A program made the position numbers and the translations under genes. The notes beneath the pieces were generated by a model. That model was not told the DNA's origin and did no database searches. It was given only the letters and a program-made list of their open reading frames with translations. Shown here piece after piece: positions 20,905 through 61,978 of a stretch of DNA of 64,000 nucleotides. Source of the DNA: Straminergon stramineum (Eukaryota > Streptophyta > Bryopsida > Hypnales > Calliergonaceae); contig OY987267.1 in the NCBI GenBank assembly GCA_963920665.1, positions 21,638,001 to 21,702,000 on the forward strand. Direction: 5' to 3'. The first letter of the stretch is position 1, and each line of letters starts with the position of its first letter.

Positions 20905-20908
20905 TTAA

Positions 20909-22024: not shown

Positions 22025-22085
22025 CAAGGTTGCTAGCAGGCGAGCCTGTGAGCGTGAGCTCATGAGCCCATGAGCCCGTGAGCTG
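22025..22085 (+). repeat. Left terminal inverted repeat of the giant element
   Basis: It begins CAAGGTTGCTAGCAGG and continues with about six GAGC tetramers spaced 4-8 bases apart. The right end, reverse-complemented, gives CAACAATGCTAGCAGG followed by a similar GAGC series. Regularly iterated tetramers at both ends look like repeated protein-binding sites. Confidence 0.68.
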
Positions 22086-22707
22086 GAAATTTTTTGGGGG
22101 ATTTTTCAAGAGGGGGACCTATAGCCATGGGTTGGGGATATTCAAAAATTACATAAATGTGAGGCCATTTTCTATGAAATTACTGACAAATGTCTTTCAT
22201 GCAACAATGAAATGTAATCCATTTCCATAGAAATTTTTCAATGCAAAATTGAAAAGGGTTACAGTACACACAAAAAAATTAGCCATAAAACATACAAATC
22301 CAATCATAAAAAAACCCAATACACAATGGTTAGTCATGAGATATATAAATCTCATGAACTAAGTTTCACTAGACTTGGTCTCTGAATCCTTAGTAGAATA
22401 AGAATCTGTAGATTCTCGGCACTCGGATGATGACCTATCAATAAACTCTAGAACATTAAGAGAATATGCTTCCCTATGTGATGTGGGATTTGAGCAACCA
22501 AAATCCACGAATGTGGATGCTAACTTCTCGGCATATATGGGAAGATCGAAAGTCTTCTCCAGACTTAACGTGAGATGTAGTTTCTTCATGGCCTCATCAT
22601 GAAGCATCAATCTAGAATTGTTGCAAACACATAAAAAAGATTAAAACTAGGAAACATTAGAATTAGTGCCCATACATTGATTTGAGAATGAATTTAAACT
22701 TACTTAC

Positions 22708-24622
22708 TGAATTTGGTTTTCTGCACAAACTTCCTAGGGACCATTGTCATCGCATCCAGATCTTTTGGTGTTGTCATCATTGTTGATGGTGTCACTGTAG
22801 CCGACGTGGTCCTCTTCAAAGGCTTCAGAATAGCGTTGAAAATGTCTACATCCTCCTCCAACGCCACGATGTGGTGGCCCGTGCCATGGCATGCGACAAT
22901 TGAAGCTCCTATCAAATTAGAAACCACAAATATGAATTCCATGATTGCAGTCACAAATACTTATTTAAATTAAATGTAGTTAAATTTCCAACGTATCGGG
23001 CGATGCTGTACAATCCAAGATAATGTCCCCTTCCTTAGTTGTTGCTTCAATGAGGAGTTGAAAAAATCATGGATCTTTCTATTGTGGTCCTCTCCATGGT
23101 TTTCCACCATTCATTGCTAAGTCAGCTTGACTGGTGAAGTTCATCAAGATGTCGTCTTTCCCAATATCCATTCCAGCTTTTTCCATTGTAGGTGTGCGCT
23201 TGAATGAGAACTTTGATTTTCCTTTCCCGCCAACATCCTTCACCAAGAGTGTGATGCCAAACTTCTACATCTGTAAAGATTCAGAGACTACAAACATAAA
23301 AAAAAGTGCAATCCATAGAAAGTGCAAACTGTATTTGTGATTTCACTAGTGAAGACAATATTGGGCACCCCCAATATTCTAAGCCGATCCTAATAATGCT
23401 TTGGGGTTCACACCAATAATACAAAACACAAAAAAAAATTATGAAGGATAATTGAAGACAAAAAATTGACAGAAACATGAACAAAATATCATGAGGTATA
23501 TTTTCAGAGTACCAACAGGCACCCAAAAAATCTTAGTCAGATCCGACTATAGTCTTCGGGTGCCTATTGATACTAGAGAAACCAAACAAATTATTCGGTA
23601 AGAGAAAGGACTAACTTGAGGAAGACCAAAAATTTCAATTTTTTGATTAAGTGAGGGTAGCATTAGGCACCCAAAAAACCTAGTTGGATCCAAATACTTT
23701 TTTTGAGGTGCTTAGTACTATTCAAAATCCAAGAAATAAAAGCATTATTTTTTGTTGTTGCAAATTTTTTTTGGAATTTCTACAGTTTCCTTATGGATTT
23801 CAAGGGTAGTATTAGGCATACTAAAAACACTAGTTGCACCCAAAATGTATTCTAAGGGCCCTAATACTCTTCTATAAATCCAAGAAGGGGTTCGAAATAC
23901 TTGCAATAGATAGATATAATGCTATTTGGAAGGGGGATTTGGGGTAGTGTTATGGACCCCAAAAACCTTAGTTGGATCCGACTAAGGTTTTGATGGTGCT
24001 TAGTAGTACCTCCAAAACCAAGAATTTTAGCACAATCTAGCAAAATATAAAGGAAAATATCATGAATTAATACTTTGTTTATTTTGGTTGTACTTATAGT
24101 ATAAGGCATCTCTGAGATGTCTACTACGATGAGTTCACTAGGTTTTTGGAGGTGCCAACCACTATGATTAGAAACAAAATAGGGTTTAAGGAAATGAGGG
24201 AGCAAAAACATGAATTGTTGAAAATCATTTTGGATTTCAAAAAACAACAACTAGTGCACTGCAAAGACTAACTGTGCTGGAGAGATCAAAAGGAGAAGAC
24301 AAATGGAGTCGATTCATTCCCATCCACTCTTTTCTGATGACAATGTTGTACGTCTTGCAAAGTCCCGCAATGCTTTCCTTCGACACAGTAGAATGCGAAT
24401 GGATGACAATGATGGATCCATCATCTTGTAGGTGTTTCTTAGCAAATTCGAATGCATTTTGAAGAGCAATGTGACCTTCATTTGCATTCCATCCCGGTAT
24501 CTTTGATGGTGGAGAAGATACTCTTGGCACTAGCAAATTTTCTTGGCAATCAACAATAACAAGGTCGACATTAGGCCAACGGTTCACCTTGCCACAATAT
24601 AGGCGGCCCTTGTCACCCGACA
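22708..24622 (-). pseudogene. Methylase-like C-terminal region of the cargo gene
   Basis: Exon 24622-24273 encodes VDLVIVDCQEN where beta-class N4/N6 DNA methylases have DLxxxDPPY, followed by a helical segment and VIRKEWMGMNRLHL. Exon 23270-22997 encodes KPWRGPQ, FFQLLIEATTKEGDIILDC and TASP. Exon 22908-22708 continues GASIVACHGTGHHIVALEED. Together the last two match the AdoMet-binding pattern (FxxLI..T..GDxVLDPFxGSGTT..A...GR..IGxE). The order, motif IV before motif I, is that of the beta class. The DPPY replacement and the altered glycine loop suggest weak or absent catalysis even before the stops. The donor after TASP reads ATACGT rather than GTACGT, so splicing there would fail. Confidence 0.68.
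23350..24165. repeat. Array of palindromic hairpins in a methylase-gene intron
   Basis: The 1-kb intron between exons ending at 24273 and starting at 23270 holds about six imperfect palindromes of roughly 65 bp. They begin near 23360, 23508, 23655, 23804, 23942 and 24098, so spacing is about 138-156 bp. The best copy (23942-24010) has AACCTTAGTTGGATCCGACTAAGGTTTT at its centre (two halves of one self-complementary core) with GGACCCC and GGTGC arms. The first and last copies are degenerate. Spacer sequences between the hairpins look largely unrelated. Confidence 0.7.
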
Positions 24623-26045
24623 CTTGACAACAATGTATTATACAAACAAATAGAAATTCATCCTCATTCATGATTCACATCTACTAAAATAGAAATGAAA
24701 AGATTATGTAAAATGTACCTTCTTTAAGAACTCCATGATGTCAATGTAAGAATTGGGAGCCTCTTTCTCAATGCCTTCCACCACCTCAATGATGGAGATA
24801 TTCAAAATGAGGTCCTCTGTGTTGCCATCATTGTCATCACCTATGTCGATGACATCAACACCATGTGAAATGTCTTCTTCAATCAATTGTGACAATCCAG
24901 CCTTCCTATTGACACCCCTCTATGAAGGAAGGTGCATTTTAGAGCCTTGGTCAACAGTGGATGAAGCTGGAACCGCTCCATCACCTTCTTTCTTCTTCCT
25001 TCCTTTGCCCTTGCCCTTCTCCTTCTCTTTCTCCATCAACTTGGCCAATCTCTTTGCATCTTTTGCTACCAACAATGCTCGGGCTTCAAGTTCCTTTGTT
25101 TCTTTCTTCTTGTCCGCATTTATTTGCTTCTCAATGGCCTTCTGCTTTGCATCTTCATCCAAGCCTACAAACTATTGGACTTGGAAGTCTGCCACTCCAA
25201 TGCCTTCAAGAGACTTCCGCAAATGTTGTTCACATGGGTGAACAAAGTTGATGGAGCAATCAAGGTACCACCTTCCACTCGTGAGGTGAGCAGTAGTCCA
25301 AGTGCGTAGCTGTAAAGGAGAGTACATACAGTCCTCGGAGCTCCGGTCACGCCATGATGCCAAAAAAGGAGGAAGTTGATCTCAGGTGATGGCATTCTTG
25401 GCCAACAACTTGTACTTGAAATAACTACAAAAGATAAACACATATTAAGAGAACATCGGAATAGAAGTGCAAGACATATAACTCAAAATAAAACCACTAG
25501 AATATTAACGCCTTACTGGAAAAGAACTCTCTTGACAATTTTCTTGGCCCCTTCAAAGTTCATAAATGAGTTTGATTTTTTGAAATGTCCACCTCCTTTC
25601 AGAGCTGGACCAAATCTATAGTCCCATATCTTCCTTCTCCATCCTTCTATGTACATTGTCAAAGACTCTCGCTCTAATGGGGTGTGCATGTTGATGTCGA
25701 TGTTGTCCTTTTTCACAACACCATCAAAGTACTTGATTGCTTCATCCTCAATCTACAAACATCCTCCATAGTTTTAGATTAAAAAATCAATTGTGTAGTA
25801 TTGTAATTAACTCATCAAGGTTGTTGTATGTAGAGAAATGATCTCATGGATTGCACATTAGCAACATTACTAATGGATAAAATAGCAAACCTACCCTGGC
25901 ATACCAAACACATTTGGTGAGAAATGGCTCCAATTTGTCTTTTGAAATAGGCTTTGTTGGGAAGTGCCTCGCCTTACGAGAAGGCATGGAGGAGTTTCAC
26001 CATTTCAAGAACTTCACTTTCTGGAAAGGAGTGGTATTGCAAGTA

Positions 26046-27188
26046 TGTCGCGCCCCTTAGTGACACTTACCACCTTAAGTTCCCTTCCAATGCTTTTCAA
26101 GCACTTGATACTTTAGTGGCACTAAGGGTCACGCTCTTCTAACACTGCACATGCCACGCACATCCAATGTTAGTCCCCAATTCCAACTCTTTGTGCTAAG
26201 TCCCAGTCATCGGGACTACTAGCACACACACACATCCATCATGACACCGGGGCACGTTACTTGGTAACATGGGGCGGAACTTCCATCTTATTGTGCAAGG
26301 ACCCATGGTGGCACTACTCACCATGGTCCTAACCGCCCTTGAATGTAACCCCAACTCCATACTAGGCTCCTTGTATATTTGCTACTTTCCACTTCATCAC
26401 TAATCGGGACTCACCATTCGGGACACCTCACATAGCCTAGCAAGGAGTGGGACTCCACCCAACTGGTGCCACGGGACACACCCAAGTGTCCCATGGTGCC
26501 TTGGAGTGGTGGTGACCCCACACCACCAACCTTGAGTCACCGGGACTCACCAAGGCTCCAAGAGGGAGTGAGGAGTGAGACCAACCCCTCCTATATTACT
26601 TTCTGTGGAATTCGGCAGACCCCCCCTTTGTATGTCAAGGGGGACTCCCAAACACCCTTTGGTTTTGGAAGACCACCCCGTTTCTCCCGATTCGCACAAG
26701 TTTGGGACTCCCGAACTTCCACCCGGCATAACTTTGCGGTCCGGGATCCAAATCGCACATGCGACCCCATTTTCGACATTTACGCGACGCGTAGATGCCG
26801 ATGGACTACTCACTTGCTCCATTCGGACAAGTAATTGCAAAGTTATCGCCCTCCAAAGATTCGGGACACTCCCGGTGCGGCCAGGGCACTCCCGGCGCGA
26901 CCGGGACACCCCCAACTTTGAACGCCCATAACTTTTGACGCCCATAACTTTTGACTCGCAAGTCCAAATCACGTGTTCTTTAGACGGCTAGAAGTGTCTT
27001 CTCAAGACCTTTCCAAGCATGTATCACACGCCCCCAAATTCGTCTAGATCAGAGCGCTAACACGCTCTGATCACTCGGGACTCCTAGTCCCCCTCACCTC
27101 ATCTCTTGCAAGGCTTGGGGAGTCACCCCCAATGTCCCCCTTGCTCACCAAGGTGGCACGGGCACGCCTTGTGATGAGGGTCGTGACA
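26046..27188. mobile_element. Solo LTR with AAGTA target-site duplication
   Basis: The element begins TGTCGCGCCCC and ends GGGTCGTGACA, which are near-perfect inverted ends with the canonical TG...CA. It is flanked by the 5-bp direct repeat AAGTA (26041-26045 and 27189-27193). At 1,143 bp with no internal gag-pol it is a solo LTR, left by recombination between two LTRs. Its GC content is clearly higher than the surroundings. It lies inside an exon of the ParB-methylase gene: minus-strand codons read KLQLIA on one side and TCNTTPFQK on the other once one AAGTA is discounted. The identical target repeats suggest it is younger than its host element. Confidence 0.9.
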
Positions 27189-27964
27189 AAGTAGCTATAA
27201 GTTGAAGTTTTTCCAACGTCATTTTTGGCACCTCATTGGAACTCCAATGTTTTTCCTTCTAAAATAGACAGACAAAAGTACAGGATTCAGAAGGAAAAAA
27301 AAAGAAGCAAAATGCAATAACTAATATCATGATAGGTCAAATCACGAACCTCTTCCAAAAAACCCGACCCGAACAGACCGCATAGCGTTTGCTACACCAT
27401 AGTCACTTTTCTCCTCATCTACTGTCACCTCGTGGTATTTGCAAAGGGTTGCGTTTGATGCCATGGCAATTTCTTGCTATATAAAGGCATACACAATACA
27501 CTCATTAGTTACAAGACATAACAATAGAAAGACAAAGAAGCTAATAAGAAAGCTTCAAGTAGGAAGTCCTAGTCTCAAAATAAATTTATGAAATGAACAA
27601 CAACATGAAACTGAGAAAATAGAATATTCTTACCCGAAATATAAATGAGGTGAAAACATCAACGAGCATAGAATACCATGACTTCCTTGGAGGCAAAGAT
27701 CCGCAACGTTTAACCTCAGATGGCCGGAGCAACTCATTGAATCTTTCCATTGGAAGACGGCCGTACTTCTAGACATGGTAAAGTGTATGGACTAGATTTG
27801 TCTTCACATATGAGTCCTCGGTTTGCCTACATCGTATGCAACAAAAAGTAAATGAAAATCAAATGGTTGATAAGATGAGTAAAGTGTCTACAAAAAAGAA
27901 ATAATTTCATTCCACTAAATTTATAGGTTTTTGAATTCAAGATTAGATATGGAAGGCAAATTAC

Positions 27965-28591
27965 TTGTTGATGTCATGCATGACTTGCATGACAAGTTCA
28001 ATTCTGCCTTTGGTGTCTAAGATAATGCAATCAACAGAAATGTGCCATGAAGGGTCCAAGGAATGAAGTCGTGATATGTGGTTCATCTACGCCAATCTTC
28101 TGTGATTTCCATCACAAACAAAGAACTTGAGGTTCTTCAACTGAGAAAGCTCAAGTACTGCATCCAATTTATCAATGAAGACTTTGTTTGCATCTCTCTA
28201 TAATGCCCCCCACCTCCATCTTGTCGCTAGTGAACTCAATCGACTCCCCAGCTTCATTAGTTGTTGACACATAAAAAACAAACGCACCATCATGATATCT
28301 GTGAACAAACTCTTGCTCGAGTTTTGTGGTATCGCAAGATAACGTTGGCCTCACTATTGGCATGGCAACGAGCTTGTATAATGGAATCTGAAGACGAAAA
28401 AGATGCTTTGGAGTCCTCTGCAAACTTGCAATAGTTGCAACAGAATTTACCTTCTAGAGCCACCGCAACTCATCTTCCAGCAACTTTGAATCCTCTTCCT
28501 CAACTGCATCATTAACATTGTACTCTTTGTCTTCTACAACAATAATCTCAAGTTGCGCGGTTTCTTTAGTGCCAGGTGTGACCATCTCCCT
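27965..28591 (-). pseudogene. ParB/Srx-like domain exon of the cargo gene
   Basis: The exon starts after CATCCTCAG (28592) and ends before a GTAATT donor. It encodes an acidic lead-in (EIIVVEDKEYNVNDAVEEE), then RPTLSCDTTKLEQEFVHRY, then after a one-base shift near 28212 the key block VCDGNHRRLA. That is followed by WHISVDCIILDTKGRIELVM. DGNHR matches the GxxHR/GERR box of ParB-fold nucleotide-binding domains. The Trp expected after RRLA is a TAG stop, consistent with a TGG-to-TAG change. A further stop (RWL-stop-KVNS) lies near the front. Confidence 0.7.
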
Positions 28592-29398
28592 CTGAGGATG
28601 CAAAGAAATCATCAATAAGTGAGAAGTCCATAAGGTAGAATGTTGAATACATAAATATAGCCCTCAACATTCCAAATTGTAGTGATATTGAATTCAAAAC
28701 CAATGGTGGTAATGAAGGATTAGTATATTTCGAAATCACTCATTTCCATACAATGAATGTTTGTCTAAGGCCTTAATGGTGTAAGGTCCCATATGAAAAT
28801 TCTACAAACTATTCATTACACATAGCATCTGGGTTGATGTAGTCCTCATAATATGGACTTACAATTGAACAAGATGATTTACTTGAATCATACTCTGAAG
28901 TATACTTAGTGTTGGAGCTCTCTCTTGAAAAGATAGGTTGCCTAGGATTTGCACGTTTTCTTGGGTTTGTGATGCGACTATGATAAAAAATTTCTCGAAT
29001 ATCCCATGCTCTATCAATAGCATCCAAAATGTCTCCCAAACTTACCAAACTACTCTCTTGCACAAGAAGTGCAGCATCCGAAGATCCCTCTGTTTGAATT
29101 AACAATGGAAGTGTCGTTGGTCCCTCAAAAACAACCAAGGGCTCTCTCTGTCGAGGTGTTGAAGTGTCCATCGGTTGACTCCGTTTGCCTCCAAGGATGT
29201 GAACCTGAATACCATAACAATTCATCTCTTTACTATTGGACTCCTTCTTTTAGAAATAGTAAAATAAAACGTGGCCAATTAATAAGAACAAGTCTGTACC
29301 TATAAAATATATAGACATCATAACTACAAGTTTACATTGCATATATTCATGGCAATAAAGATTTTGACTTGATCTTGAAGGTATCATTGGGCACCCCT

Positions 29399-29840
29399 AA
29401 ACACTATTTATTTTCAAAATTATTGAGGGTAGTGTTTGGCACCCCCACATCACTAGTAAGGTCCGACTAGTGTTTGGAGGGTGCCAAACACTACCCCCAA
29501 AATTTAAAAAAAAATGAAGGCATTTGTCTTTCGACCACATCAAACTCAAACACTATTTATTTTTAAAATTATTGAGGGTAGTGTGAGGTACCTCCACATC
29601 ACTAGTTGGGTTCGACTAGTGTTTGGAGGGTGCCAAACACTACCCCCAAATTTAAAAAGAAATATGAAGGCATTTGTCTTTTGACCACATCAAACTCAAA
29701 CACTATTTATTTTCAAAATTATTGAGGGTAGTGTGAGGCACCCCCACATCACTAGTCACGTCCAACTAGTGTTTGGAGGGTGCCAAACACTACCCCCAAA
29801 ATTTAAAAAAAATATGAAGGAATTCTAGATAGCAATGCCT
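29399..29840. repeat. Three tandem 150-bp units, each with a palindrome
   Basis: Units start at about 29398, 29548 and 29698, each opening AAACACTATTTATTTT. Each contains a palindrome (29427-29496, 29575-29645, 29725-29795) with GGCACCC-type and GGGTGCC arms around CACTAGT...ACTAGTG. Here the spacers are also near-identical, so this is a recent local tandem amplification. Distant copies of the same palindrome lie in other introns. Confidence 0.85.
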
Positions 29841-30064
29841 CTTGAGTAATGAAATACTAACAGATTCAAAATTCAGGTTACTTATCACTGTTGTAGCCTA
29901 ACTGAGACAACTAAGACATTTTATTTTTAAATTGACTACTTGTCAGCATGAAATCATTAGAAAAAAGTGAATTAATTAAACTTGTAGTTTAGTGAATAAG
30001 TATGATCATGATCAAGTAAAGACATCAAACTTCAATAAATTTTTTCGAATGTTATAGAAGAGGA

Positions 30065-30890
30065 TGGCCCCCCCAAAATATTACTCAGGTCCAACTAGTG
30101 ATTTGGGGAAGCCTACGCTACTCTATAAAAGTAAGAAAATAGGAAGCCCTTTATCTTTAATCTACATTACTCTTTTTCATAAGGATTGTTTTATTCATAT
30201 TCTACAGTAGTGTGAGGCACCTTCATAACATTAGATGGAGCCGACTAGTGTTTAGAGGGTGCCCATCTCTCCTATGCAATTCAATTATTTCTTAATAAAT
30301 TATAGAATAGAAATAGGAAAGTACATCAATCTATCTTGAACTACTTCCGCAACAAATGCCTTATATTCCCAAAAGTTTCTAGACAAGTAACATTGGACAT
30401 TGAAATACTTCAGTGGTAATTCACCTTATCATGATAAATTCTTTCTCTAAATGGACTCATACTAAGTATATCATTTTTTTTCTAAATGACCTCAAATGCC
30501 TGAACCCTAATCTAGCACTACTTCATGGGTTAAAGAGCATTTCACCTCAGTATTTCAAAAACATTGGGACCCAGTGATAACAAGCCCAACCCTGCGACTA
30601 ATTTGTAATTAAATAGAGTTTATAATTTGGGTAGCCCGAACTACCTGAGAAACACCAATCGACGCTAAGATATTGTTTCGAAGGAGGATGGAGGTCCCTG
30701 AGATTCAACTTATTTTGCCAACAAGATTTGTTTACACTTGGTGACAATTAGATTAATTAGTAGATAGCAATCGCAGTTGGAGTGTTATCATTCTGTTTTA
30801 ATTGTGAAAATCTTGAATCTAGGGTAGTGCAAGCCACCCATAAAACTAGAGTCGGCTCCGACTACTGATTCGAGAGTGGCTCACACTACC
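30065..30890. repeat. Further palindromes in the 5' part of the cargo gene
   Basis: Three more copies of the palindrome occur at 30065-30122, 30205-30266 and 30822-30890. The last has AGTCGGCTCCGACT at its centre and the arms GGTAGTGCAAGCCACCC and GAGTGGCTCACACTACC. They lie in what is probably a large intron between the tentative first exon (ending 31174) and the exon starting at 29204. Confidence 0.7.
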
Positions 30891-31392
30891 TCCGATTCAA
30901 ACTTCACTCGGGATGTTGATGTTGTAGTTGATGAGGTTGTTCCGTTTTTTTGAAAGAGATTTGGTCCAAACAGTTGGATCGAAGCACTAGCTCCTTGAAA
31001 CTCAATTCCTATCTACATCAAAGCTATGTGAACATGGGTGGGTTTAATGCTATCAATGAAGTCGTGTCAAGTGAATCTTTGACCTCTCACATACATCTCT
31101 AGACAACATATCTTGGAGCATGAAGTCGTGATCAAGCACCTGGTGAACTCTGAGTTTTCGTCAACTATGTCTTTCATTCAAGCAGATGACGAAGGAGCAC
31201 TGCAACAAAGTCCCATCTTTGCAAGAATGCGTGGAAGTTCAAAACCAGTCTCTCATGCAAGCCACAAATGAAAAGAGGGTTTTGACAAACTTGTCTTGCT
31301 GGACGAGATCTGACTTGTCCGCACGACTCCAATGGCTCCGAGGCTCTTGGGGCATCATCCTTCTTGCATGATCTAGTGCTCCGCTTTGTCAT

Positions 31393-33595
31393 CGCCTACA
31401 AATGTCGTTACCACCAACAAATTCAAATCATTGCAATGCGACCTTGGCCACCGTCTATGCAAACTAAGCTCTAAAATGTCACAAAGCATCCTCGGCTAAT
31501 GGCAAGGACATGTGTTTTCGTGAGGGTGGGAATCTCAGTGCGACAGTTTCGGGATTGCGCGCCACCGTAAACGCTACCTTTTCAAGACCAACGCGTTTCA
31601 AAGTCATGAGAAAATTCTTCAAAAGTGGGGTCCATCATCACCGTTGTTGCCTGAAGCTGAGCTTAGTGGTCAATGCAAGCGTGACTAGGATACCTACACT
31701 AACTGGTGACACGAGCAACTGGCCACGTCATCTCGACCGGCAATGCCAGTTCGGCCAACACGGGATGCTCACTTAGAGACTACAGGTCATTGGTTGGGGC
31801 CAGCTGGATGGTGAACATAAGCTCATTTGTCAACGTCAACTACTTTGTTAATGCTAAGTAAGCTTTTCAACTGGGGCTAGATCAATTTTCTTTGTTGAAT
31901 TAATGTAATTCCAAGTAACCTTTCACCGATTTAGTATTTTAGTTTCATTGTAAAATTATCTCGCAAAAAACATTTTACTGTGATTTATCCTATAAATTTA
32001 AGTATAATATCACAAGAGCAGTGTTTGATTGTTGAGTCCCCATGACATATATCTATTTTGAAGAAAGCTCTATTTCATGTGATTTCAATCCATTGGGAAA
32101 ATAAAATTCTTTGTTCATATAGTCAACAATATTGGTGGGCAAAACCCTAAATACTGAACTGAAACATTACTCACATCTACTTAATGCTAGAAAGTGGTTC
32201 AAAAATAATGTATTCATGATGATATATGTTTTAGGGAAGTGTTACATGTCCAAAGCATATGTTGATGTTGAATTCTCCATTATCCTTGCCATATTTACCA
32301 AACATTTAAAAGATGTCTATATACTTCTCACTTAAATAATTCCTACCAACTGCTTCACAAGACCAAAGCAAACGTATAAACTATAGATACCTTTTAATTT
32401 CAATGAATTATTTACATAATGGGATGCGTCTCCTCAAACCTAAAGCCAATGATACTGATCATGGAGGTTTAGGAGTATCAAGAATGTTAATTGACCCATA
32501 GAAATACTAGTTCTAATCAAGAATTGTTGTGTATGCATACATTTCCAATGGACATTCACTTAGGAAAGCAAGTGACTACCTCATCAAAATACAAGGTGCA
32601 AGAGAGAACTGTCACCATCAAGAACCATCCATACTCGACAAATTCAATTTATAAGCGCACTTCAAAGTTGTCACATAGACTCTAGGATTCACAGATGCTT
32701 ACAGCTCCAATGTTCTCTCCCAGTGGTTGAGCTTGCACACTACTATTCTCTTGAGACAACTCCGCTACTGCTTCCAGTTTCTGCATAACAGTGTCCGCTT
32801 GCCCTACACTCTCTCTTTCTCCAAAACTCAAAATTTTGCATAGGGCTCCTGGGGTATCTTGCGCTGTCTTGAAGACTACCTTTTTTTCCTTTCATTCTAG
32901 ATCTCCGAAGAGCTCTAGAAGATGAGAAAATGAGAGTTCTACGCTTCCTCCTCTTTTTCCTCTCCTTCACTTAAACACACTCAACTCTCTGGTACTCTAC
33001 TTGCATGAAGTACCTAAAAAAAATATAGATAACTATATTTGAAGCTCAAAAGAATATAAAGCAAACAAGGGTTTCTAGAAAGTGTGCTTCCCGTTCATGA
33101 ACACTTTCAAGCGCTTATAAGCAGTAGCCACCATGAGTAAGCTTGAATGCAGAGAAGACACTGACATCCACATGAATCGGCGTCTTTGATTCCTGAAATC
33201 TTCTGCAATTGAAGTGTGTTGTAATTAATGAGCCCCCATTTGTAAGTCCAAAAAATAAACTCACTAGTGGCCCTATATTATTATAATCTATGTAGGACAA
33301 CATATTTATTGAAGACTTGCTAAACGACTATAAAAGGATTGTCAAGTTTTCAAAATCATAACAGAGCTACCTTTTATTACAAGGTCGGAGCACCAAATGT
33401 CATTAGTGTATTTAATGGCATCAGTAGTGTTCATTTCGAAACATAAATGTAGGTAGACATTAAATAGCTTATTTTATTTGATGTGATTGATAAGCTATCT
33501 ATAGTCTTCTTACATTTTTGTTCTAGAATCAATGCCTCATATAGAATCTGAGGCCAAAGAATAGGAAAACTACCACCATTTAGTGCTCCTAGCTT
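31393..33595. promoter_or_regulatory. Central spacer between the two divergent giant-element genes
   Basis: About 2.2 kb separate the tentative start of the minus-strand cargo gene from the first readable codons of the plus-strand transposase. The left third (31400-31800) is clearly richer in G and C, with CpG-containing stretches, and would suit a promoter region. The rest is AT-rich and may hold transposase 5' exons or UTR that I could not read. No TATA box is convincing. Confidence 0.4.
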
Positions 33596-36500
33596 ATGCA
33601 ATCTAGAATAGTGCGTCCTCTATTCAAATCAAAAGTGGCTTGTCAACATTTATGGAGTAGTAAAGAAGAGATACAAACACCCACCTTCATTGGGTTTGAA
33701 TACTTCAAATTCGACGCTCACACCTTTTGTTATGTTGTAGTCCGTCATCATTTGAATTCTTCTTCGCTTCCACAAATTCAATATCCCTTCAATTGCTATA
33801 GGTAGTGCGGTTCTGTTTATGCAATGGCTTGCATTCGAGTAGATGGACAAGAGGTTTCTCTTGTATTTTTGGTAGAGGATGGAGGATGAGCTAAAGTCCT
33901 TAGTCACCTTCTTCACATGAGATTCAGATTTGTAGAGTCCTCCATCTATGTAGAGGAAGAGAGGATGTCAAAGACTGGTGAATTACAAGAGTCTGTGGTT
34001 GTTGTGAAGTCTATTGAAGAAGGAGGGCATTGTTGGTACCTTACTTCTAGAAACTATAGAGCGTATGGACTTCCATTGTCTTTGTTAGCAACATCTACAG
34101 AGATTCTAAGTCGTCACTCTAAAACGTCGACAATGGATATGCCCTACATGCCACCGTCGACTTCACCTAGTCCACCACAGAAAGTTCTTCCGGTCTTCTT
34201 ACACACTACACCAATACAAGCAATGAAGATTGAGAAGTTAGAGCCCATTATTGAATTGTCAAGTGAATTTGAGGGTGAATCACCTAATTTGACACTTACA
34301 AATCATGCTTCCTCTATTGAAATTGTATCTGATGTCAAGCCATGTGACAAGTCTACAAAAGTGACCTTATCAAATAGCCTAGCACAATCTTCATTTTCTT
34401 GTCCTCCATTGTATCCCAATGCAAATGATCGACTGAGCATAATCGACTGCTTGAGAAGACTAGCTAGTGTGCATCGTTCTCGAAATGAATTATCAATGAT
34501 CAATTTCAACTCCATCTAGCAACATCTGGTTCAATGTCTTCCTCCTATTTTTGACGGTGACATCATCTTTGAATTGCCAGCGTGTCGGGCATCTGCATCT
34601 TTGGTGGTGGCTTGAAACTTAGAAGGAATGGACAAGTGTTACGATGGACATCCGTGGTGCAAGCTAGTGACAACAAACATTCACAACTCCGACCATTTGA
34701 AGTTCCGTAAGTCATACTGTGCCGGTCATCTTGCATGTAGAAATGTTGAGTGCGAATACTTAAGGAGGGCATCTACTCGGAATGAAACAGAGTGGAGTGG
34801 TTGCATGGCGTTCCCATTTGTAGTAGGTGAAATTCTTCCAAAAGATTCCACTTTAGTTTGCAAGGTCTGTAGGAAATCTCCCTTGTACATTAGTACATGC
34901 AATGCTAGGATGTACTATTCCTACATCGAGAATCCAAAAATGACTAGGGACGCTATTCATTTTGGAAAACATGCACACCTTGTTGCTAAAGGTATATATA
35001 GAGACTCTATAGAAAAAATCTATGGACTTATTGCAGAGCAAGTTGCAAAAACACCAATGGCCACAAACTCTGCAATTGCTCTCTCCACCAGCAAAGAATT
35101 TCTGACCAATTATCTTTTCCACAATGGGGTTGGAGAGAAGCAAATGTTGAGTGGGGATGAACTAAAGGAGGTTATGGATCGCTTCCAATATTTGAGCAAT
35201 CCTAATATATGGAACGTCATTTCTTCTTTCCGCTCAAACAACTGAGGTGGGGTCCTCGACCACATCATGACTATGAAGAAAGACTCCAAGTTCAAATACA
35301 TACATGATAGTGTCTTCCCCGGACAAGGCAAGGAGAAAGTGCACTTATTCAAGATGTTGACGGAAGGACCAAGAAGTGGTGTGGACCTCATGAAGTGCAT
35401 GCAATCCAGAGGTGACCTACAAAATGCGTGGATGATGTTTGACCACGTGAAGCGGGTCAAGGAGTGGACCACAATGGCTTGCCATGTGTACGATTCCGGC
35501 CATAAGAAGGTGATGACAATTGCTATATGTGACATGCAGTCAAAGGACATGGAGGTCCAAGTGCAGTTCTCACAGGAAGAAATTATGTTTTTTTTGGTGT
35601 CGGGCCTTGACATGCTCGTGTCTAAGGCCTGGACACTTTATGTTCAACTTGGTGTCTACATGTCTTCTTGTACATCTCTACGTCTACTAGGAGTTGAAGT
35701 GGATGTTGGAGATGAAAAAGGGAAATTCGCATGAAAAAACATGGTGGTGTTGCTATTTGCATCCACTTTGACGTTGAGATGGTGCCTGACATCATCATGT
35801 TCAAATGGTTGTCTGAAAAAACAATATTTGACACGTCAGCAGTGGGGACCCACTTTGACCGTGGGTCATTTTCATTTACATTATTATATTTTTAAATAAC
35901 AACGCTGCCCGCTTGAAAAAAAGAGTTGGGCAGCATTTTTTGGGCAGGGTATGTTAAAAAGTGATGACGTGGTAGATGACATGGTAGATGACGTGGTCCA
36001 AAGCTGACGTGGCAAATAATATGCTGACTTGGTAGACACTGCCACGTCAGCAATTTCTTAGTTCAACCATTCTAATGGCCTTCTCTGGAATGCCATGAGC
36101 AACTTCAAGACGTCCCAAAAGACATCCACATAGACGTTTAATGTTGTAAATGATGTCTCAAAGGACCTATTGGCGTTGAGGGTGATCTTCCTATTAATAT
36201 TCGGGTATTTACATTGAGGCACATGAGACAAGAGGATGTTGATGAAGAGATTAGGATAAGGCAATACGAACATTCCCTAAGACATTCAATGGGGCATGGC
36301 AGTCTTCATTGTCTTGCACATGTGCACTTCAACATAAGGTATGTTTGTCTGAGATGACGTGCATTGAATTTATAAGAATTTAGCTTATGTAGTGTCTAAA
36401 GCATGAAACTTTACTATGATGTTTAGGATGTTCACCATGGAAGATAATTTCCAACTATAAATTTCCATAGGGAAAGGTTCATGAGTGCTCTTAATAGTCT

Positions 36501-37786
36501 AATACAAAAGTTATAAGAACAAGTGGCATGGAGGAGCATGATGATGTGGGAAACTACAAAGACGTGCATTGTGTAGAGGGTTCACATGAGGCACCTTCAA
36601 TGCAAATTGGCAATGTCATATGAATGTTTTGGGAGCACTGAAACATGCACTAAAACATACATATCGTCTATAGTATTGTCATGATGTCTGCACAGACGGC
36701 TATGTGTTAGGCAACCCTCTAGGAAAAAATTTGTAGGCCCTTAAAGCCTACTTAGGAAAAAAATGGAGACATGTTTTGCACCCAATTAAAAAAAATATGA
36801 AAACATGTGTAGGCCTCATAACTTCAATAACTCCAAAAGGAGGAACATCCATCCCACTAAAGAAAACAAACGTGAGCACATCTGTAGTATTCCAAATCCA
36901 TCTTAGGAAATAACAAAAGAAGATAAAAGGGTCCAAATTCACAGGTCCACATACACTAATTATGTCCACATACACTAATTATGTCCACATTCAAAAACAA
37001 ATGTCTAAAATGACAAAGAATGGACCAAAAATGTCCGAACTAACACATCTTAATTGATTGAAAGTGTCCAAATTGACAATGTTCATTTGAACTAACTTAA
37101 TATTTTGCTCCTCTTAATACTTCAAATATTGCTTTAAGCATTGACACAAAAATTCTCTTAAGAGATAAAGTATAAAGTATAAATATAATCTACTCAAAAT
37201 GACGTCAAATTCTCTCTTAAAGAGATTCTCCTTTATATAATGCTTTAGGCAAAGAATACTTACTCATCACTTAAGTGATTATTAAATTATTCAATTTACT
37301 TGATTTAACATTCATAAAATACTCAAGGTAAAATATCATCAAAATTCAACTTCATGCTTAAGCAATAATCACTATAACTTAAGTGAATAAAATAACTAAG
37401 AATGACACTTATAAATTTTCTTAAAAAAATAATCCAACAACAAAAAGCATAAAAACACAACCCCACGTCCCGAATGCAATAACAAATAAAGGAGAGAGAA
37501 AAAATGAGAGAAGAGAAAACTATATATCCCCATCCTCCCTCAAATATCTTTTCCAATCTCTTGATAAAAACCTGTCAAAATCCACAACCGCTCAAGCCAA
37601 AAAGTCATTTCACACTTTAACTTCAAATATCATCACATTCACACTTAATCTCACAAAACTTTAAATACCTAATCCATTTCACACTTAAAAAAACAAAATT
37701 TATTTAGAAAATGAAATTATCCTAATTACACGTAGCATCTGAAATGTCTCTACTGTTTTCAAGTAATCTCATGAAAGAACTTTGCA

Positions 37787-38085
37787 AGCGTCCAAGCCTC
37801 CTATTAAAAAATAAAATATGTAAAGATGGATAGGCCTCCAAGCATCCTCATAAAATAAAATAAAATATGCAAACATGTGTAGGCCTCCAAGCATCCTCAT
37901 AAAATAAAAATAAATGTGCAAACATGTGTAGGCCTCCAAGCATCCTATTTGAAATTAAAATATGCAAACATGTGTAGGCCTCCAAGCATCCTATTTAAAA
38001 CTAAAATATGGAAACATGGGTAGGCCTCCAAGCATCCTCATAAAATCAAAAGAAATATGGAAACATGCGTAGGCCTCCAAGATTT
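37787..38085. repeat. Minisatellite with about 53-bp units
   Basis: About six tandem units each contain TAGGCCTCCAAGCATCCT followed by an A-rich stretch and GCAAACATGTG or GGAAACATG. A lone related unit lies near 36790-36815. It is inside the CACTA-type element. Confidence 0.85.
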
Positions 38086-38328
38086 TGAAATTATATTATA
38101 CTACTGTTGTTGTCATCTATTTTGACAGAAATGGTTTAAAAAGGCGTGCCACCTGGGACTCTTAGATGTCTTAGAAGACATTGGAATGGACGTTCTAGTG
38201 ACAGTCAACAATCGTGACTACGGAACCCTAAAAAAGTCGGCGGCTGCTTTTGCCTGTCGCGTGGAACCCTAAGGCATCTTCTTGCAGACTATTCAAAAAT
38301 TTAGCTTTGGAATTGAGAGCAATCTTTT

Positions 38329-40343
38329 GTGTGCAACATGACACTTCACTTAGGTGCGCAGAGTTGTCTTCCTTTTCCAAGTGAAGAAGGAGCTTTAACA
38401 GAAGGAGATTATGATCTTGACAGGGATAGTGCAGGTCTCAGCATTTTCAAGAACTTTTTGGAGGGGGTTATGGTTGCATCACTCACTTCAACAATGGAAG
38501 CAGCCGAGGCGCCCACTGCATCCACCCAAAACCTCCATAGAAGTAGCCGCCTACACAATCCAAGTGAGTTTTAGGGTGAGAACGCTTGTGTGATGCCACA
38601 AATCTAGTCATTTGATGCTTGGTACGAGGTCTCAGTCTTAGTGCGGACGTCTCAATGCTGTCTTGGACCCTGTTTTCGACATTGAATCAAGGCAGTCCGA
38701 TTCCATTACAACGTCTTCTTATTTCTATGTTGGGGCTTAGGGGGGGATAATCTCAGTGAACTTGTTGCCTTGATCATGTTGCCTTCATCCTCAACCCTTG
38801 TCCTCAAGGAGCCTTTGTCAAGCTTTAATTAGGATCGTCGTTAGTTTTAGGGTGAGAATGTTTGTGTGATGCCACAAATCTGGTCATTTGATGCTTGATA
38901 CGAGGTCTTAGTCTTGGTGCGGACATGTCAATGTGGATGCAGATACTGTTTTGGACATTGAAGCAAACAATCTGATTCCAGTTGTTAACTACAGATTCTC
39001 GCCTCTCTGTGGGTTTAGGGTTTTAATAGGTCAGGAAACGTAGTTTATGTTCATGAACATTGAGGCCCCCATTGGAAGCCCCCCTGATGTTTTAAATTCT
39101 TTGTGTTGACATGGATTGGATGTGCCCCCCAAGGTGTTGGTGCTTGGGCTTGGGCTTATATTTTTATTGATTATTTTGGTGAGATTGCATGTCGCTGTTG
39201 ATGTAAATCCGTCGTTGTGGACGTCTAAGATGTCTAAATGTCATGGTGAAATTCCAGGACCATGGGACCGTGCTGTTGTAGTCATAAGGTGTTCAAGTCG
39301 GTAATTATGAGACTTGTGTTGTCATGATCAGTGATCAAGGCCTTGTGCATGTTGAATCTCAGTTTCTACCTACAACAATAGCTATGTTGCTTGAGTCACA
39401 TCCTTTTGGAAATCCCTATACTTAGACGCCCTTTTTGATATCTTGAAATATATGAAGGTCAGAGATTGGAGATCGTCTTGCTGAGATGACTAACTTGATC
39501 CGTTTGCTTGTGCAATCCTTTGGCCTTGACAGTGTATAGCATTAGATGCTTGCATCAACGCCCGCAGGCTTGGCACTCTTGTAGGGCAACGTCTGCACCC
39601 TATATTCCCCAAGTTTTTGACAGTCACAACACTGCTGCAGGTGACGTTGATGGAAATAGAACCAATACTGTGCAGGCTGGTGAAGTTGGTGCAGACGTTG
39701 GCGTGGATGCAGATGAGGACGCGGAGCCTAAGGTTGACTACTTGATGGACCATCCCCCGGACAACGCAGGAGACATTGATCCCGAACAGAGTGAGGTTGA
39801 TGCTGTTGTGGATACCACTCCCGGCCTTGACGGAGTGGCCCTTAACCCCCCTGCAACGCTTCTTGATAACATGGTGAGCGCTTGTGTGGACGTCCTTGCA
39901 GATCCATATGCCATAGTGGCTCAGCCTGCATCCGGCGAGGGAGAGGGTACTCCTATTGCCTTGGCAGAGCAATCCAACCCTCGAGAGGTATTTCTCATGT
40001 TGGACGGGACAAGAACATAGATGGGAGGTAGACATTGGTGTGTTGTTTTAGACATTGTATTGGACATTCTGTATCTCTCTCTTATTATAGTGTTTTATCA
40101 TTTAGTTCTAATAGTATGTACGGTGGTATTATGTGCAATCAGGTTGAAAATCTTCCATCTAAGGGATCTTCGTCTCGCATCAATCGAGTGACAAGGACCT
40201 TGAAGCCAACAGCAAAGCCAACAGAAGTGGTCACCACTGTGAAGGCTACGAAGGGAACCATGCAGCAAGTGCCCAAACCGAATCCTCCTACAGGAGGGGG
40301 CAGCCCAGAAAAGGAGAAGCATCACGGAAGAAATGACCATTGA
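38329..40343 (+). CDS. Possible multi-exon gene inside the CACTA-type element, function unknown
   Basis: Three stretches could be exons: 38329-38563 (ending HRSSRLHNPS before GTGAGT), 39508-39987 and 40143-40343. The second and third are joined by GAGAG|GTATTT and CAATCAG|GTTGAA in the same phase (intron 39988-40142). The middle exon is strongly acidic (for example GVDADEDAEP); the last is basic and Pro/Lys-rich (VTRTLKPTAKPTEVVTTVK). No known domain is recognised. CACTA elements often carry captured host gene pieces as well as their own DNA-binding protein; either could apply. Confidence 0.35.
38567..38935 (+). repeat. Two imperfect direct repeats of about 93 bp
   Basis: 38567-38659 and 38843-38935 share most bases, including GATGCCACAAATCT and TCATTTGATGCTTG, and continue to a GTGCGGAC stretch. 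They are separated by about 180 bp of unrelated sequence inside the CACTA-type element. Confidence 0.8.
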
Positions 40344-42532
40344 GGTGTATTTTGATTCTCTCAAAAGCATGGATATGTGGCTGGTAGGCCTTCAGTTGTC
40401 TGTTTGTCCATTGTCACTAACATCGAGCGTTTGTTTGTAGGACTCCTTCTGTCCATGGAGACCTCGCCTTCAATGCTCAGATGTTTGCTTAGACATAGAG
40501 GACGCTTCACGCAACATTGTGAGAACTTCTTGGTAGCACTATTTCATGATTATCTTAACGGGTTTAGTGTCTATCATATTTTTTGTGGGGCATGTTGTGC
40601 TATATTACCTTTTACAAAAGCTTTGTTCTCCTCATGGAGATTTGTTTTCCTTGCAACACTTTACCGGTATATGAATATGATATTTTTTATTTGTCTAAAG
40701 GTGGTGCATGTATTTTTTGTTTGCCTAAAGGACCATTCAGTGGTGCATGTATTTCAAGTATTGTGATTGTGCTAAGCTCTCTTGCTATGCAATGTCATTC
40801 ATTGATATAGTGTAAAACCAACTTTGGTAAATATGTGCCATGCCAGAGCGTTGTTTAGGTCTCTTCAAATGTAGGCACAATGTCTAATGTTCAACGTCCT
40901 CACGATCATTGCAATGTTGCACCGCATTGTTTTGATGTCTAAATGTGTGTCTACAAGCGCACATAGGAATGCACCATGTGGTTAGGTAGGACATAATCCT
41001 AGACCCCTTCAATTCAGTGTCAATGTTTGTGAAGTCTACAACATGTCTTCATTCACGTCTCACAGTGCACATTGCTATCACATTTAAGCTTGCCCTAAAC
41101 GTGGAAGCATCAAAAGCTATGCATGCATGTCATTAAACCTAGCCCTATACACGTCCTGAACATTATCTACACAGACTTGTGCTTGTCAATTGCCTAACTA
41201 GTTAGTGTCATTTCAGACATCCCATGCTCAAACCCAATCTTCAAGGACGTTGGTACGAAGCATGCACACGTTGTCTACAATGATTTGTTACTTGTAAAAA
41301 TGTTGTACATGTGAATGTTGACATCCAACGCGCCACACGTCTAGTAGAAAATAGCATGAACATGTCCCTAACCATGTCAAATTCCCCACTGTGAAAGCCT
41401 CAGACGACACAAATGGCGTTAGAATCGATGTGCTTACCAGCAGTGCATGTTCCGCATAAACATTGTCGTTAACGTAGGTATGTCTAGGACAACATCGTGT
41501 TAGACATTTTGATGTCTGGAAAGACATCTTCCAGACGTATGTAGAAAGCTCCAGAAGAGGCTTCTCCACGCACCAAAATTGTCCACGTCAGCATTCGAAG
41601 ATGCCACGTCACCTACTGTTGACTCCCCGGTCAATGTACACATCAGATGCCACATCACCAAAATTGGATGGATGAGAAAATTGCCAACCTGGCTGCCCGT
41701 GCTCACGTGGCACCAAATTTGTAGCCACATGGCAGAGTTTTGGCACCCGTTGACCAGTGTTTTTTTGGATGTCCGGTGCTTAGCATGCCGTTGTCTATGC
41801 TAATTCTTGGATGTCAAAACCCTGTTTTTGCAGACGCGATGTGATTAGACATCTACGTCGACATGCCTGATGTCGGATCCGACGTCTGAGTGTTTAAATT
41901 TCGCAGTCGGGCGACTGCGTGTTTTCTTCTAGTGTTCTGGACGTCCTTAAATACTATCATATTGAGGTATGGAGTGGATCATCCTAACTTTAAGGGATTC
42001 ATGGCAGATAGTGCCATGGCAAATTGGAATGCAGTTTGTATTGTTTATAGTAGTGGTTCAATAGAGAAGCCAATGGAGAATCGTGAAAGAACATGTTTAT
42101 TGCATTGGAGCACATCTCTGCAGAAACACACCCAAAATTTCATCAAGGAAGACTTACAACAGCAACACACCATACTGTGCAAACAATACAAAGAGTCAAA
42201 GACTATAGATGAGGCAGAGACACGCTACCTTGTGATTCGCTCTTGGTGGTTATCATCTAGAGCTACTACTAAAGATGCACTTCACCATCTAGATCATTGA
42301 TTAGCATTCTAGCATTTTAGATATAGACAATGGAGTAGCTTCAATCATATGGTAAGTGAATATAGAATTTAGCATAATCTATATTCCAGCTAATTTGTAT
42401 TATGTGAATGAGTATTTTCCATTTGGGATTTGATGTTCTCTTTAGTCGCATGGGATTGAGGATTTCATTTTATCATGTTCTAATTGAAGTGTTTGTTTGG
42501 TTACAAAATGAAGTTTCTCTTTATTAAAAAAT

Positions 42533-42899
42533 GAGAGTACCAAACAGCACCTCCAAAACCATAGTCGGATCTGACTAAGGTTTTGAAGGTACTCTACGCT
42601 ATTCTAGTTTTTGAAGGCCAACACTGTTTAGGGTGAAATTTTCCAAGAATATTACATAATCTTTTTTCCTATTTTTTCATAAAGAAGAGTAGTAGAAGGC
42701 CCCCCCAAAATCTTAGTCGGACCTTACTATGGTTTTGGAGGATCCTTATACTACTCTTGATTTAGAAAAAACAAATTGAAATGTTCTTAGAATTACTGTA
42801 CCACAAATATTCTTGGCCATCATAAATCAGAGTAGCATAAAGTACCCCCAAACCTTAGTCGGATCCATCTATGGTTTTAGAGGTGCCATTCTGTACTCT
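42533..42899. repeat. Three palindromic hairpins in the transposase intron
   Basis: Copies at 42533-42603, 42687-42756 and 42829-42899 lie within the 645-bp intron 42352-42996. They share CTCCAAAAC or CCCCAAA, then TAGTCGGAT and TATGGTTTTGGAGG-like arms with the copies in the cargo-gene introns. Start-to-start spacing is 154 and 142 bp. Confidence 0.72.
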
Positions 42900-44052
42900 C
42901 ATTTTTCCAAAAAAACAATAATGATCAAAATTTATTTCCTTCATCCTTTTGAATTGTATAAGTGTACTTATGATTTTTTGGCAAATGGACTTGTAGGGTT
43001 TGACCTTAGAGGAGATGGTCGACATGCCTTCTTGCACATTATCAAAAACGGTTCACAACAAGTGGTTGCAGATGTCTAGCAAAAGAGGAAACAATTTGTT
43101 TGATGCCACTTGTAATGATAGCAGTCGCACGTGGATGCATATGACAAACTACAGAGCATACTTGAGAGGTAACACTTCCGGATCTGGTCCATCAAAGGGG
43201 GAGTTGAAGCTTAGAGCTGCAAGACGTAGTGGAGATCCAAAGAAAATGGTAGAAGCACTAAACACATTACCTGGAGCTTAGGATTTGAGAACTAGGGTCC
43301 CACACTTGGAAGGAGAAGAAGTTTTGGGGAGCATGAAGAGGAAGTTTGACATACCTATTGATGATGCATGAGACTCACATCGACCGGACAAAGTGAACTT
43401 CTCTCAACCTCGTGTTCGTACAAGGTCTACAATGGTTGGTGTAGAGTCTTTCCATGGCAAAGCAAATCAATTACAAGCTAATACTACCCCTCACATGACT
43501 GTTGCTTTTGAGAGCGATTGTGACACATCTAAGTGGCACATTGCAAGGATCAACCACAAATCAAACAGCAAATGCCAAGCTCAACAACGCGGTTCAAATT
43601 TAAAGTGCACGGCAAAAATTGCAAGGGGAACCAAGGGCACACCAGCTCCAACATATCAGGGGAGGAAGGAAGATTATAGGAGTTGTCAAGAAGTAGTGTC
43701 GGATTTCTGGTTTTGTTGGGATGACATCGAAAGATGCTTGAAGGGAACTAAACGCAAATGGGTCCTTGATTGGCTTGAAGTGCCTAAGGTGTGGCCTATT
43801 TTGACAAGAACAAATCTCAATCGAGAGGAGGCCCTGTTGTTGCAACATGTTGACTTCCATTTGCAAGAGCACCCAACATTGTCTCCTCGTTGACTCTTCA
43901 ATATGTCTAATATATTTGAGAGCGTTTTGTATGATCATCAGCCACCACCAAATCCTGATACATATCCAATGATGAGGAACAACAAAACAATCCGACAAAT
44001 TGCAAATGCACCAACAGTAGAACAATGAAATAAGTGGGAGAGTGCTGGCAAT

Positions 44053-44385
44053 GTGAGAGGTCAAATTCTTGGAGTGACATTGCTTCCCTTTCCTGGCCTA
44101 GGTGCAAGAGTTTCTCTCGAGACTAGATTAGAGCATAACAAGAATGTGTATAGAATTTCACTGGGGCAGTTTCTAGCATGCAAATGTCCAAACTTTGTGA
44201 ATATGGTTGTTTCTACCATTGGAAGCCTCCAGCAATACATAAATTGCAAGCACTTATACTATTTGTATAAGTACTTCAGCAAGATGGATACCCATGAACA
44301 TAAGTTCATTCATGCTCCAAGTTATAGCTTCAACAAGTTCAAGCTTCTTCTTGTTCGAGCAGGGATCGTTAATATTCTAGAATAG
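44053..44385 (+). pseudogene. C-terminal SWIM zinc-finger segment of the MULE-type transposase
   Basis: The last 110 codons include SLGQFLACKCPNF and, 19 residues after the second Cys, CKHLYYLY, giving C-x-C-x19-C-x-H. This is the SWIM zinc-binding pattern typical of MULE transposases and FAR1-type proteins. An in-frame TGA at 44026 precedes it. Confidence 0.8.
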
Positions 44386-44880
44386 GCATGGTCATGATTT
44401 TCTAGGTATTTCACAAGTATTGTATTACTACATAGCGATTACAAGTGTAATGACCCCTAAACCTATGGAATGGAAAATGTGCATGCTTTCATAGTGTATA
44501 TGATTGCATAATCTAGCTGGACAGATGAAATTAGCTGGACAGATGAAATTAGTACTACGAACTTTCGCCCAAATAGCATGGATCTACCATATTTGCAACT
44601 TTTGCAATATTTTATATTGTAGTATATGAATGAAGTGCTGAAATTCTTCCCTTCCCTTTCCCATTTCTTTTTCACCTTTGTTTCTTTCTTATGCCTAAAC
44701 GCATAGCCCAAAAAAAAAAAGATAATAAAATAGAAAATTTAACATAATCCATGATTATAGAGGACAGAGTCATAGGTTACAAAACTTACCAAAAATAGGA
44801 AGTTTTTCTCTATTTTTGAAAAAAAATGTTACCAAATAATATTTCAAGGAAAATTTTTTTTTAAAATGTTTTGGGGGCTT

Positions 44881-44940
44881 TAGGCTCACAAGCTCCATGC
44901 TCACAGCTCACCGCTCCAAGCTCACCTGCTAGCATTGTTG
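44881..44940 (-). repeat. Right terminal inverted repeat of the giant element
   Basis: Read on the minus strand from 44940 it begins CAACAATGCTAGCAGG and continues with six GAGC tetramers. It pairs with the left repeat at 22025. Agreement is strongest over the first 20 bases; the GAGC series is alike in style rather than base by base. Confidence 0.66.
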
Positions 44941-60816: not shown

Positions 60817-60820
60817 TTAA

Positions 60821-61974: not shown

Positions 61975-61978
61975 TTAA

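What the first reader, a model, noticed from the sequence alone, without database searches (positions are those of the whole stretch)
22025..44940. A giant MULE-like element that carries a ParB-methylase gene
Inverted ends (shared TGCTAGCAGG, then iterated GAGC) enclose two large divergent genes, each ending within about 500 bp of an end: a MULE-type transposase with a SWIM finger and a ParB-like/DNA-methylase gene. Seen: ends, gene order and domain motifs. Known: MULEs can carry cargo such as Ulp1-type proteases. Inferred: one element mobilised both genes, and the methylase served the element, for example by marking or protecting its DNA. I know of no described element with this pairing.
Basis: partly seen in the sequence, partly recalled or inferred. 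Interest (0 to 1): 0.92.

Follow-up and report, generated by a model that had tools for sequence, protein, structure and literature searches.

The report
Plant Mutator transposon with ParB-methylase-like gene
This is a large jumping gene of the Mutator (MULE) kind in a land-plant genome that usually carries, next to its transposase, a second gene joining a bacterial-type ParB domain to a DNA-methylase-like domain, apparently because the jumping gene itself profits from it.

Summary
The finding holds up. The ends at 22025 and 44940 are real termini: 20 other left ends in the host genome share their consensus, with unrelated flanks, and 5 of 8 two-ended copies have 9-10 bp target duplications. 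Pairing is the rule: 20 of 20 left ends, fetched by terminal DNA alone, carry pieces of the ParB-methylase-like gene; 5 of 5 copies followed further run left end - ParB-MT - divergent transposase - right end, 10.6-18.3 kb; 53 of 60 scored transposase genes have a head-to-head ParB exon within 20 kb, random mean 0.44. Both genes show purifying selection (median dN/dS 0.17 and 0.21). Predicted folds support a ParB domain and an IS256-like transposase core. Corrections: the window copy is decayed, shows no target duplication, and holds a 6.4-kb CACTA-like insert inside the transposase gene. The methylase domain lacks the canonical DPPY motif in 17 of 17 copies read, so ordinary DNA marking is doubtful. 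Best reading: an element-serving accessory protein, most likely binding its own DNA, like VANDAL VANC. Ten paper searches listed no description.

The parts
22025..22088 (+). left terminal inverted repeat: CAAGGTTGCTAGCAGG followed by six GAGC
   Evidence: aligned with 20 other left ends; terminus at 22025, flanks unconserved
44866..44940 (-). right terminal inverted repeat: CAACAATGCTAGCAGG followed by six GAGC
   Evidence: 88% identical over 203 nt to the right end of the 2.6-kb copy L015, which has a 9-bp target duplication; related right ends in 5 of 5 longer copies
22362..28594 (-). ParB-MT gene, decayed. Exon blocks (minus strand): 27964-28594 ParB fold; 27628-27846; 25516-25752 and 24707-25423 middle region; 24273-24629 methylase motif IV region; 23001-23264 and 22703-22909 methylase motif I region; 22362-22610 C-terminus
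   Evidence: tblastn against relatives and against 20 copies; exon reading
28812..29249 (-). possible N-terminal exon of the ParB-MT gene
   Evidence: open frame upstream of the ParB exon; not confirmed by relatives
33824..35569 (+). transposase gene, part 1: N-terminal domain, GCM-like region, first catalytic D
   Evidence: 67% identity to P0001 residues 1-582; folds
35571..41934 (.). nested CACTA-like insertion inside the transposase coding sequence (starts CACAGGAAGAAA, ends TTCTTCTAGTG, flanked by TTCT/GTTCT)
   Evidence: P0001 reads without a break across this point; flanking repeat and ends
41935..42360 (+). transposase gene, continuation: second catalytic D and C(2)H motif
   Evidence: 73% identity to P0001 residues 582-723
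42976..44352 (+). transposase gene, last exon: candidate third acidic position (K here) and SWIM finger; the open frame ends at 44385
   Evidence: 40% identity to P0002 residues 786-1268; motifs
29399..30887 (.). largest of three clusters of palindromic 45-64 nt repeats (others at 23521-24007 and 42549-42887) in introns and the intergenic region
   Evidence: also present in related copies L012-L015, no match in the window outside the element

Best explanation
SHOWN: 22025-44940 is a decayed copy of an abundant Mutator-superfamily (MULE) DNA transposon family in a land-plant nuclear genome. The standard element is left TIR with iterated GAGC - ParB-MT gene (minus strand) - transposase gene (plus strand, divergent) - right TIR with iterated GAGC; five other full copies measure 10.6-18.3 kb, and target duplications of 9-10 bp are seen at most two-ended copies examined. 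The ParB-MT gene encodes a ParB/sulfiredoxin-fold domain followed by a domain homologous to beta-class N6/N4 DNA methyltransferases, a fusion known from phages. Both genes are under purifying selection between subfamilies. INFERRED (about 35% likely as a specific mechanism): the ParB-MT protein is the element's accessory protein. Its ParB domain acts as a nucleotide-switched DNA-binding module on element DNA, most likely at the iterated GAGC arrays of the ends, and the methylase-like domain, whose catalytic motif is altered, binds DNA or SAM rather than methylating in the usual way. The result would be local protection from host silencing, or help in assembling the transposition complex, in the way that VANDAL elements use VANC.
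Against: No function was tested. Binding of ParB-MT to the GAGC arrays is conjecture. 7 of 60 transposase hits have no scored divergent ParB partner within 20 kb; and from the side of the left ends, only 12 of 39 have a scored ParB hit inside within 8 kb and 3 of 39 a scored transposase hit within 20 kb, which I put down to the scoring of only 150 of 812 and 60 of 1310 candidates, since the sequences of 20 of these left ends do show the gene. The window copy and 2 of the other 7 two-ended copies (E020, E024) show no target duplication. Within close subfamilies dN/dS is high, up to 1.06, as expected from decay after insertion. The ParB box DGNHR is intact in 4 of 9 genome copies that cover it and changed in 5. 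Foldseek E-values for the ParB model are weak, best 0.014.
Confidence: 0.85

Rival explanations
1. The accessory gene is an active DNA methylase that marks element DNA, with changed chemistry or target.
For: The methylase exons are under purifying selection, dN/dS about 0.25, and are homologous to CcrM/DpnA-type enzymes and phage methylases. ParB fusions with N6_N4 methylases are frequent in phages (PMC12704722, section 7).
Against: Motif IV reads D-C-x-E-N or a variant of it instead of D-P-P-Y/F/W in 17 of 17 rows that cover it (E in 15, K in 2), and the SAM-site glycine motif reads DCTAS-x-GAS or similar. Loss of the aromatic residue usually abolishes N6/N4 methylation (recalled).
Confidence: 0.2
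2. ParB-MT is a structural partner of the transposase, needed for end pairing or insertion in the way MURB assists MuDR (MURB recalled), with no role in silencing.
For: Close pairing with the transposase; the selection level resembles that of the transposase.
Against: No direct evidence. Two short copies (L015, L018) in which only the 3' part of the gene was found have target duplications, but supply in trans explains that under every model.
Confidence: 0.25
3. Passenger: a host or phage-derived gene captured by chance and carried without function.
For: MULEs tend to acquire host gene fragments (PMC6446971, abstract start in the listing).
Against: Purifying selection across subfamilies, gene pieces in 20 of 20 left-end copies and a ParB exon beside 53 of 60 scored transposase hits.
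Confidence: 0.04
4. Chance composite: two unrelated mobile elements lie side by side, and the inverted ends are coincidental.
For: No target duplication at the window copy.
Against: The same order and ends recur across the genome.
Confidence: 0.01

Closest known systems
VANDAL MULEs with VANC anti-silencing proteins (Arabidopsis)
   Same: MULE transposons that encode, besides a transposase, a protein acting on their own copies; VANC targets are tandem arrays of short motifs in noncoding element DNA (PMC10398659 abstract and passages), and this family has iterated GAGC arrays at both ends.
   Different: ParB fold plus methylase-like domain, which I did not see described for VANC in those passages; no anti-silencing activity has been tested here.
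Phage ParB - N6_N4 methyltransferase fusion proteins
   Same: A ParB-CTPase-fold domain fused to PF01555-type methylase; frequent in phages and enriched in prophages (PMC12704722, section 7).
   Different: Here in a plant nuclear transposon with introns, with an altered catalytic motif and beside a MULE transposase. The ParB exon is so diverged that no ParB profile of Pfam (26 relatives) or PHROGs (3 relatives) matched.
Other MULE clades with a second ORF or domain (SET, OTU, PMD, MutB, unknown)
   Same: Second ORF or domain beside a Mutator transposase, TSDs of 8-11 bp (PMC6446971, table passages).
   Different: No ParB or DNA-methylase partner in the table passages that I saw.
IS256-family transposase ISCth4
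   Different: Bacterial insertion sequence without introns, SWIM finger or accessory gene (these points recalled).

Membership tests
Mutator (MULE) superfamily | 8-11 bp target site duplication | tested here: met
   9-10 bp duplications at 5 of 8 two-ended copies (E016, E017, E022, L015, and L018 with one mismatch); none at the window copy, E020 or E024
Mutator (MULE) superfamily | terminal inverted repeats | tested here: met
   ends align over about 54 nt in the window, score 28 against at most 26 in 1987 random pairs; left consensus from 21 copies
Mutator (MULE) superfamily | RNase H-fold transposase related to IS256/Mutator | tested here: met
Mutator (MULE) superfamily | D-D-E triad with C(2)H between second D and E (motif recalled) | tested here: inconclusive
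   D540 61/62, D606 62/62, C635 and H638 61/61; candidate E in SCNLxETVHNKW is E in P0002 and 4 of 6 genome copies, K in E017 and the window; not verified by structure
Mutator (MULE) superfamily | match to Pfam MULE or SWIM profiles | tested here: inconclusive
   no such match for the window protein at E <= 1, for 9 relatives at E <= 0.1 or for 18 relatives at E <= 0.5; a missing profile match does not exclude membership; the SWIM motif CxC..CxH is present in 4 of 4 copies covering it
ParB / sulfiredoxin fold | ParB-CTPase fold | tested here: met
ParB / sulfiredoxin fold | box II with conserved arginine (GxxR) | tested here: met
   DGNHR: D178, G179, N180, H181 invariant and R182 in at least 90% of 26 relatives; intact in 4 of 9 genome copies covering it, changed in 5; intact in the window
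ParB / sulfiredoxin fold | NTP binding | not testable with these tools
   needs biochemistry
Beta-class N6/N4 DNA methyltransferase | sequence and fold homology | tested here: met
   PHROG methyltransferases E 3.2e-5 to 1e-3; PF01555 E 0.0016, 18.8 bits, below its 26.7 cut-off; hhalign 95-97.5%; no structure was predicted for this part
Beta-class N6/N4 DNA methyltransferase | catalytic [DNS]PP[YFW] | tested here: not met
   0 of 17 rows with DPPY; E (15) or K (2) at the aromatic position; hence called methylase-like, not methylase
CACTA (nested insert 35571-41934) | CACTA termini and 3-bp duplication | tested here: inconclusive
   right end rc CACTAGAAGAAAA, left CACAGGAAGAAAT; flank repeat 4-5 bp rather than 3

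The most novel reading that the evidence does not exclude
A prokaryotic-type ParB switch fused to a repurposed methylase fold has become the standard accessory protein of a eukaryotic Mutator transposon family. It loads at the iterated GAGC arrays at the ends and recognises and shields the element's own DNA, a self-recognition system built from phage-type anti-defence parts and used against plant silencing.
Probability: 0.25. Interest if true: 0.95.

Novelty: new variant of a known kind. Interest (0 to 1): 0.82.

Why it matters
How DNA transposons hold out against host silencing is open outside a few angiosperm systems. Here an abundant plant MULE family (first-look candidates in a 326-Mb genome: 812 and 787 for two ParB exon queries, 150 scored each time, and 1310 for the transposase, 60 scored) keeps a phage-like ParB-methylase fusion under selection. 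That makes three questions directly testable: does a ParB NTP switch work on eukaryotic DNA, what does a methylase fold do after losing its catalytic motif, and does it act on silencing or on transposition. It would also be a ParB-fold protein family in eukaryotes other than sulfiredoxin, which a 2025 survey calls the most common eukaryotic representative (PMC12704722, passages).
Full report
What was claimed.

The ends. TGCTAGCAGG occurs exactly twice in the window, in inverted orientation; by itself this is weak, since with one mismatch shuffles give 2.06 matches on average and 6481 exact inverted 10-mer pairs exist in the window. The two ends align over about 54 nt; the score 28 exceeds all of 1987 random segment pairs, maximum 26. 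Six GAGC lie in each end; no other 60-nt window exceeds four. The host genome (G000, 326,016,511 bases, 59 contigs; the window is C5:21638001-21702000) has 40 scored matches to the left end out of 63 candidates, the window included. I fetched 10 kb inward from 20 of the 39 others, the best by E-value. The 20 fit, with scattered substitutions, the consensus CAGGGTTGCTAGCAnGCGAGCCTGTGAGC, and the 10 flanking columns are unconserved (largest base share 0.29-0.48). The window's termini are therefore 22025 and 44940.

Target duplications. L015 is a 2.6-kb derivative with both ends; its right end is 88% identical to the window's, and CCAATGTAC flanks it on both sides. L018, about 2 kb, has TGGTACTCAG/TGGTACCCAG. 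E016, E017 and E022 have CTCATGTCCA, TATAACCATG and ATATGATGTC. E020, E024 and the window copy have none. So 5 of 8 two-ended copies show duplications of 9-10 bp, one of them with a mismatch.

Gene content. Chosen by terminal DNA alone, 20 of 20 copies contain ParB-MT exon blocks on the expected strand; the ParB exon itself is within the fetched 10 kb in 11 of 20. I followed five further: 5 of 5 have the transposase in divergent orientation and a right end, with element lengths of about 16.4, 18.3, 11.0, 16.2 and 10.6 kb (E016, E017, E020, E022, E024). In the other direction, the best 60 transposase matches of 1310 candidates were compared with 205 ParB exon places from two searches (150 of 812 and 150 of 787 candidates): 53 of 60 have a head-to-head ParB exon within 20 kb, 52 within 12 kb; random placement gave a mean of 0.44 and at most 4 in 2000 trials. 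With the first ParB search alone the figure was 32 of 60 within 12 kb, 30 of them head-to-head. Seven of 60 have no scored divergent partner; as only part of the ParB candidates was scored, this is an upper bound for real absences. By coordinates alone, 12 of 39 left ends have a ParB hit inside within 8 kb and 3 of 39 a scored transposase hit within 20 kb; these low figures reflect the partial scoring, since the sequence of the 20 fetched left ends does show the gene.

The window copy. It is decayed: 7 stops in the ParB-MT matches and 11 in the transposase matches. P0001 reads through without a break where the window has 6.36 kb of other DNA, 35571-41934, which begins CACAGGAAGAAA, ends TTCTTCTAGTG and is flanked by TTCT/GTTCT, a CACTA-like insertion. 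About 1.1 kb more lies between two ParB-MT exon blocks than in L012 and L014. Without the large insert the copy would be 16.6 kb, like E016 and E022.

Selection. Nei-Gojobori dN/dS over pairs with dS > 0.3 has median 0.174 (139 pairs, range 0.098-0.431) for ParB-MT and 0.209 (13 pairs, 0.127-0.284) for the transposase; close pairs run up to 1.06, as expected from decay after insertion. The pairs are not independent, stop codons were skipped, and saturation at high dS is possible; I consider the direction of the result, constraint on both genes, robust to these.

Mechanism. Shown: the gene belongs to the element and is kept by selection. Inferred: it acts on the element. The analogy is VANDAL's VANC, which binds short tandem motifs in noncoding parts of its own element and removes silencing (PMC10398659, abstract and passages). 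The iterated GAGC arrays at both ends (4-6 copies in 20 of 21 left ends, 2 in L015) are candidate sites, for this protein or for the transposase. I put the specific anti-silencing or self-recognition mechanism at about 35%, a transposition partner at 25%, active marking at 20%.

Known or new. ParB fused to N6_N4 methylase is frequent in phages (PMC12704722 section 7); MULE second ORFs or extra domains such as SET, OTU and PMD are known (PMC6446971 table passages). I saw no MULE with this partner in the rows listed by ten searches. I rate it a new variant of a known kind.

Noticed in passing
23521-24007, 29399-30887, 42549-42887: Twelve palindromic 45-nt repeats (many about 150 nt apart) lie only inside the element, in introns of both genes and between them; matches at E <= 1e-4 also occur in the related copies L012-L015 but not in the other 16 copies searched. 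Possible transcribed hairpins.
   Followed up: partly
35571-41934: CACTA-like element of about 6.4 kb nested in the transposase gene; two of its plus-strand open frames gave no Pfam match, its longest open frame, on the minus strand, was not scanned; a 49-bp tandem array lies at 37808-38081.
   Followed up: partly
about 26000-27200: GC-rich insert of about 1.1 kb (GC 0.52) inside the ParB-MT gene; boundaries and type not resolved.
   Followed up: partly
20190-21343 and 60146-62446: Diverged direct repeat family (78-91% identity) about 40 kb apart, with inverted relatives near 13686-13909.
   Followed up: no
1769-5264 (minus strand): TRM/LONGIFOLIA-like plant gene (name recalled) with DUF4378 and VARLMGL motifs.
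   Followed up: no
49001-50000: Strong local GC skew, 0.478, in an AT-rich stretch.
   Followed up: no
L015, L018: Short two-ended derivatives (about 2.6 and 2 kb) in which only the 3' part of ParB-MT was found, consistent with mobilisation in trans.
   Followed up: partly
window 22025 and 44940: No target duplication at this copy although both termini are present, suggesting rearrangement between copies or later change of the flanks.
   Followed up: no
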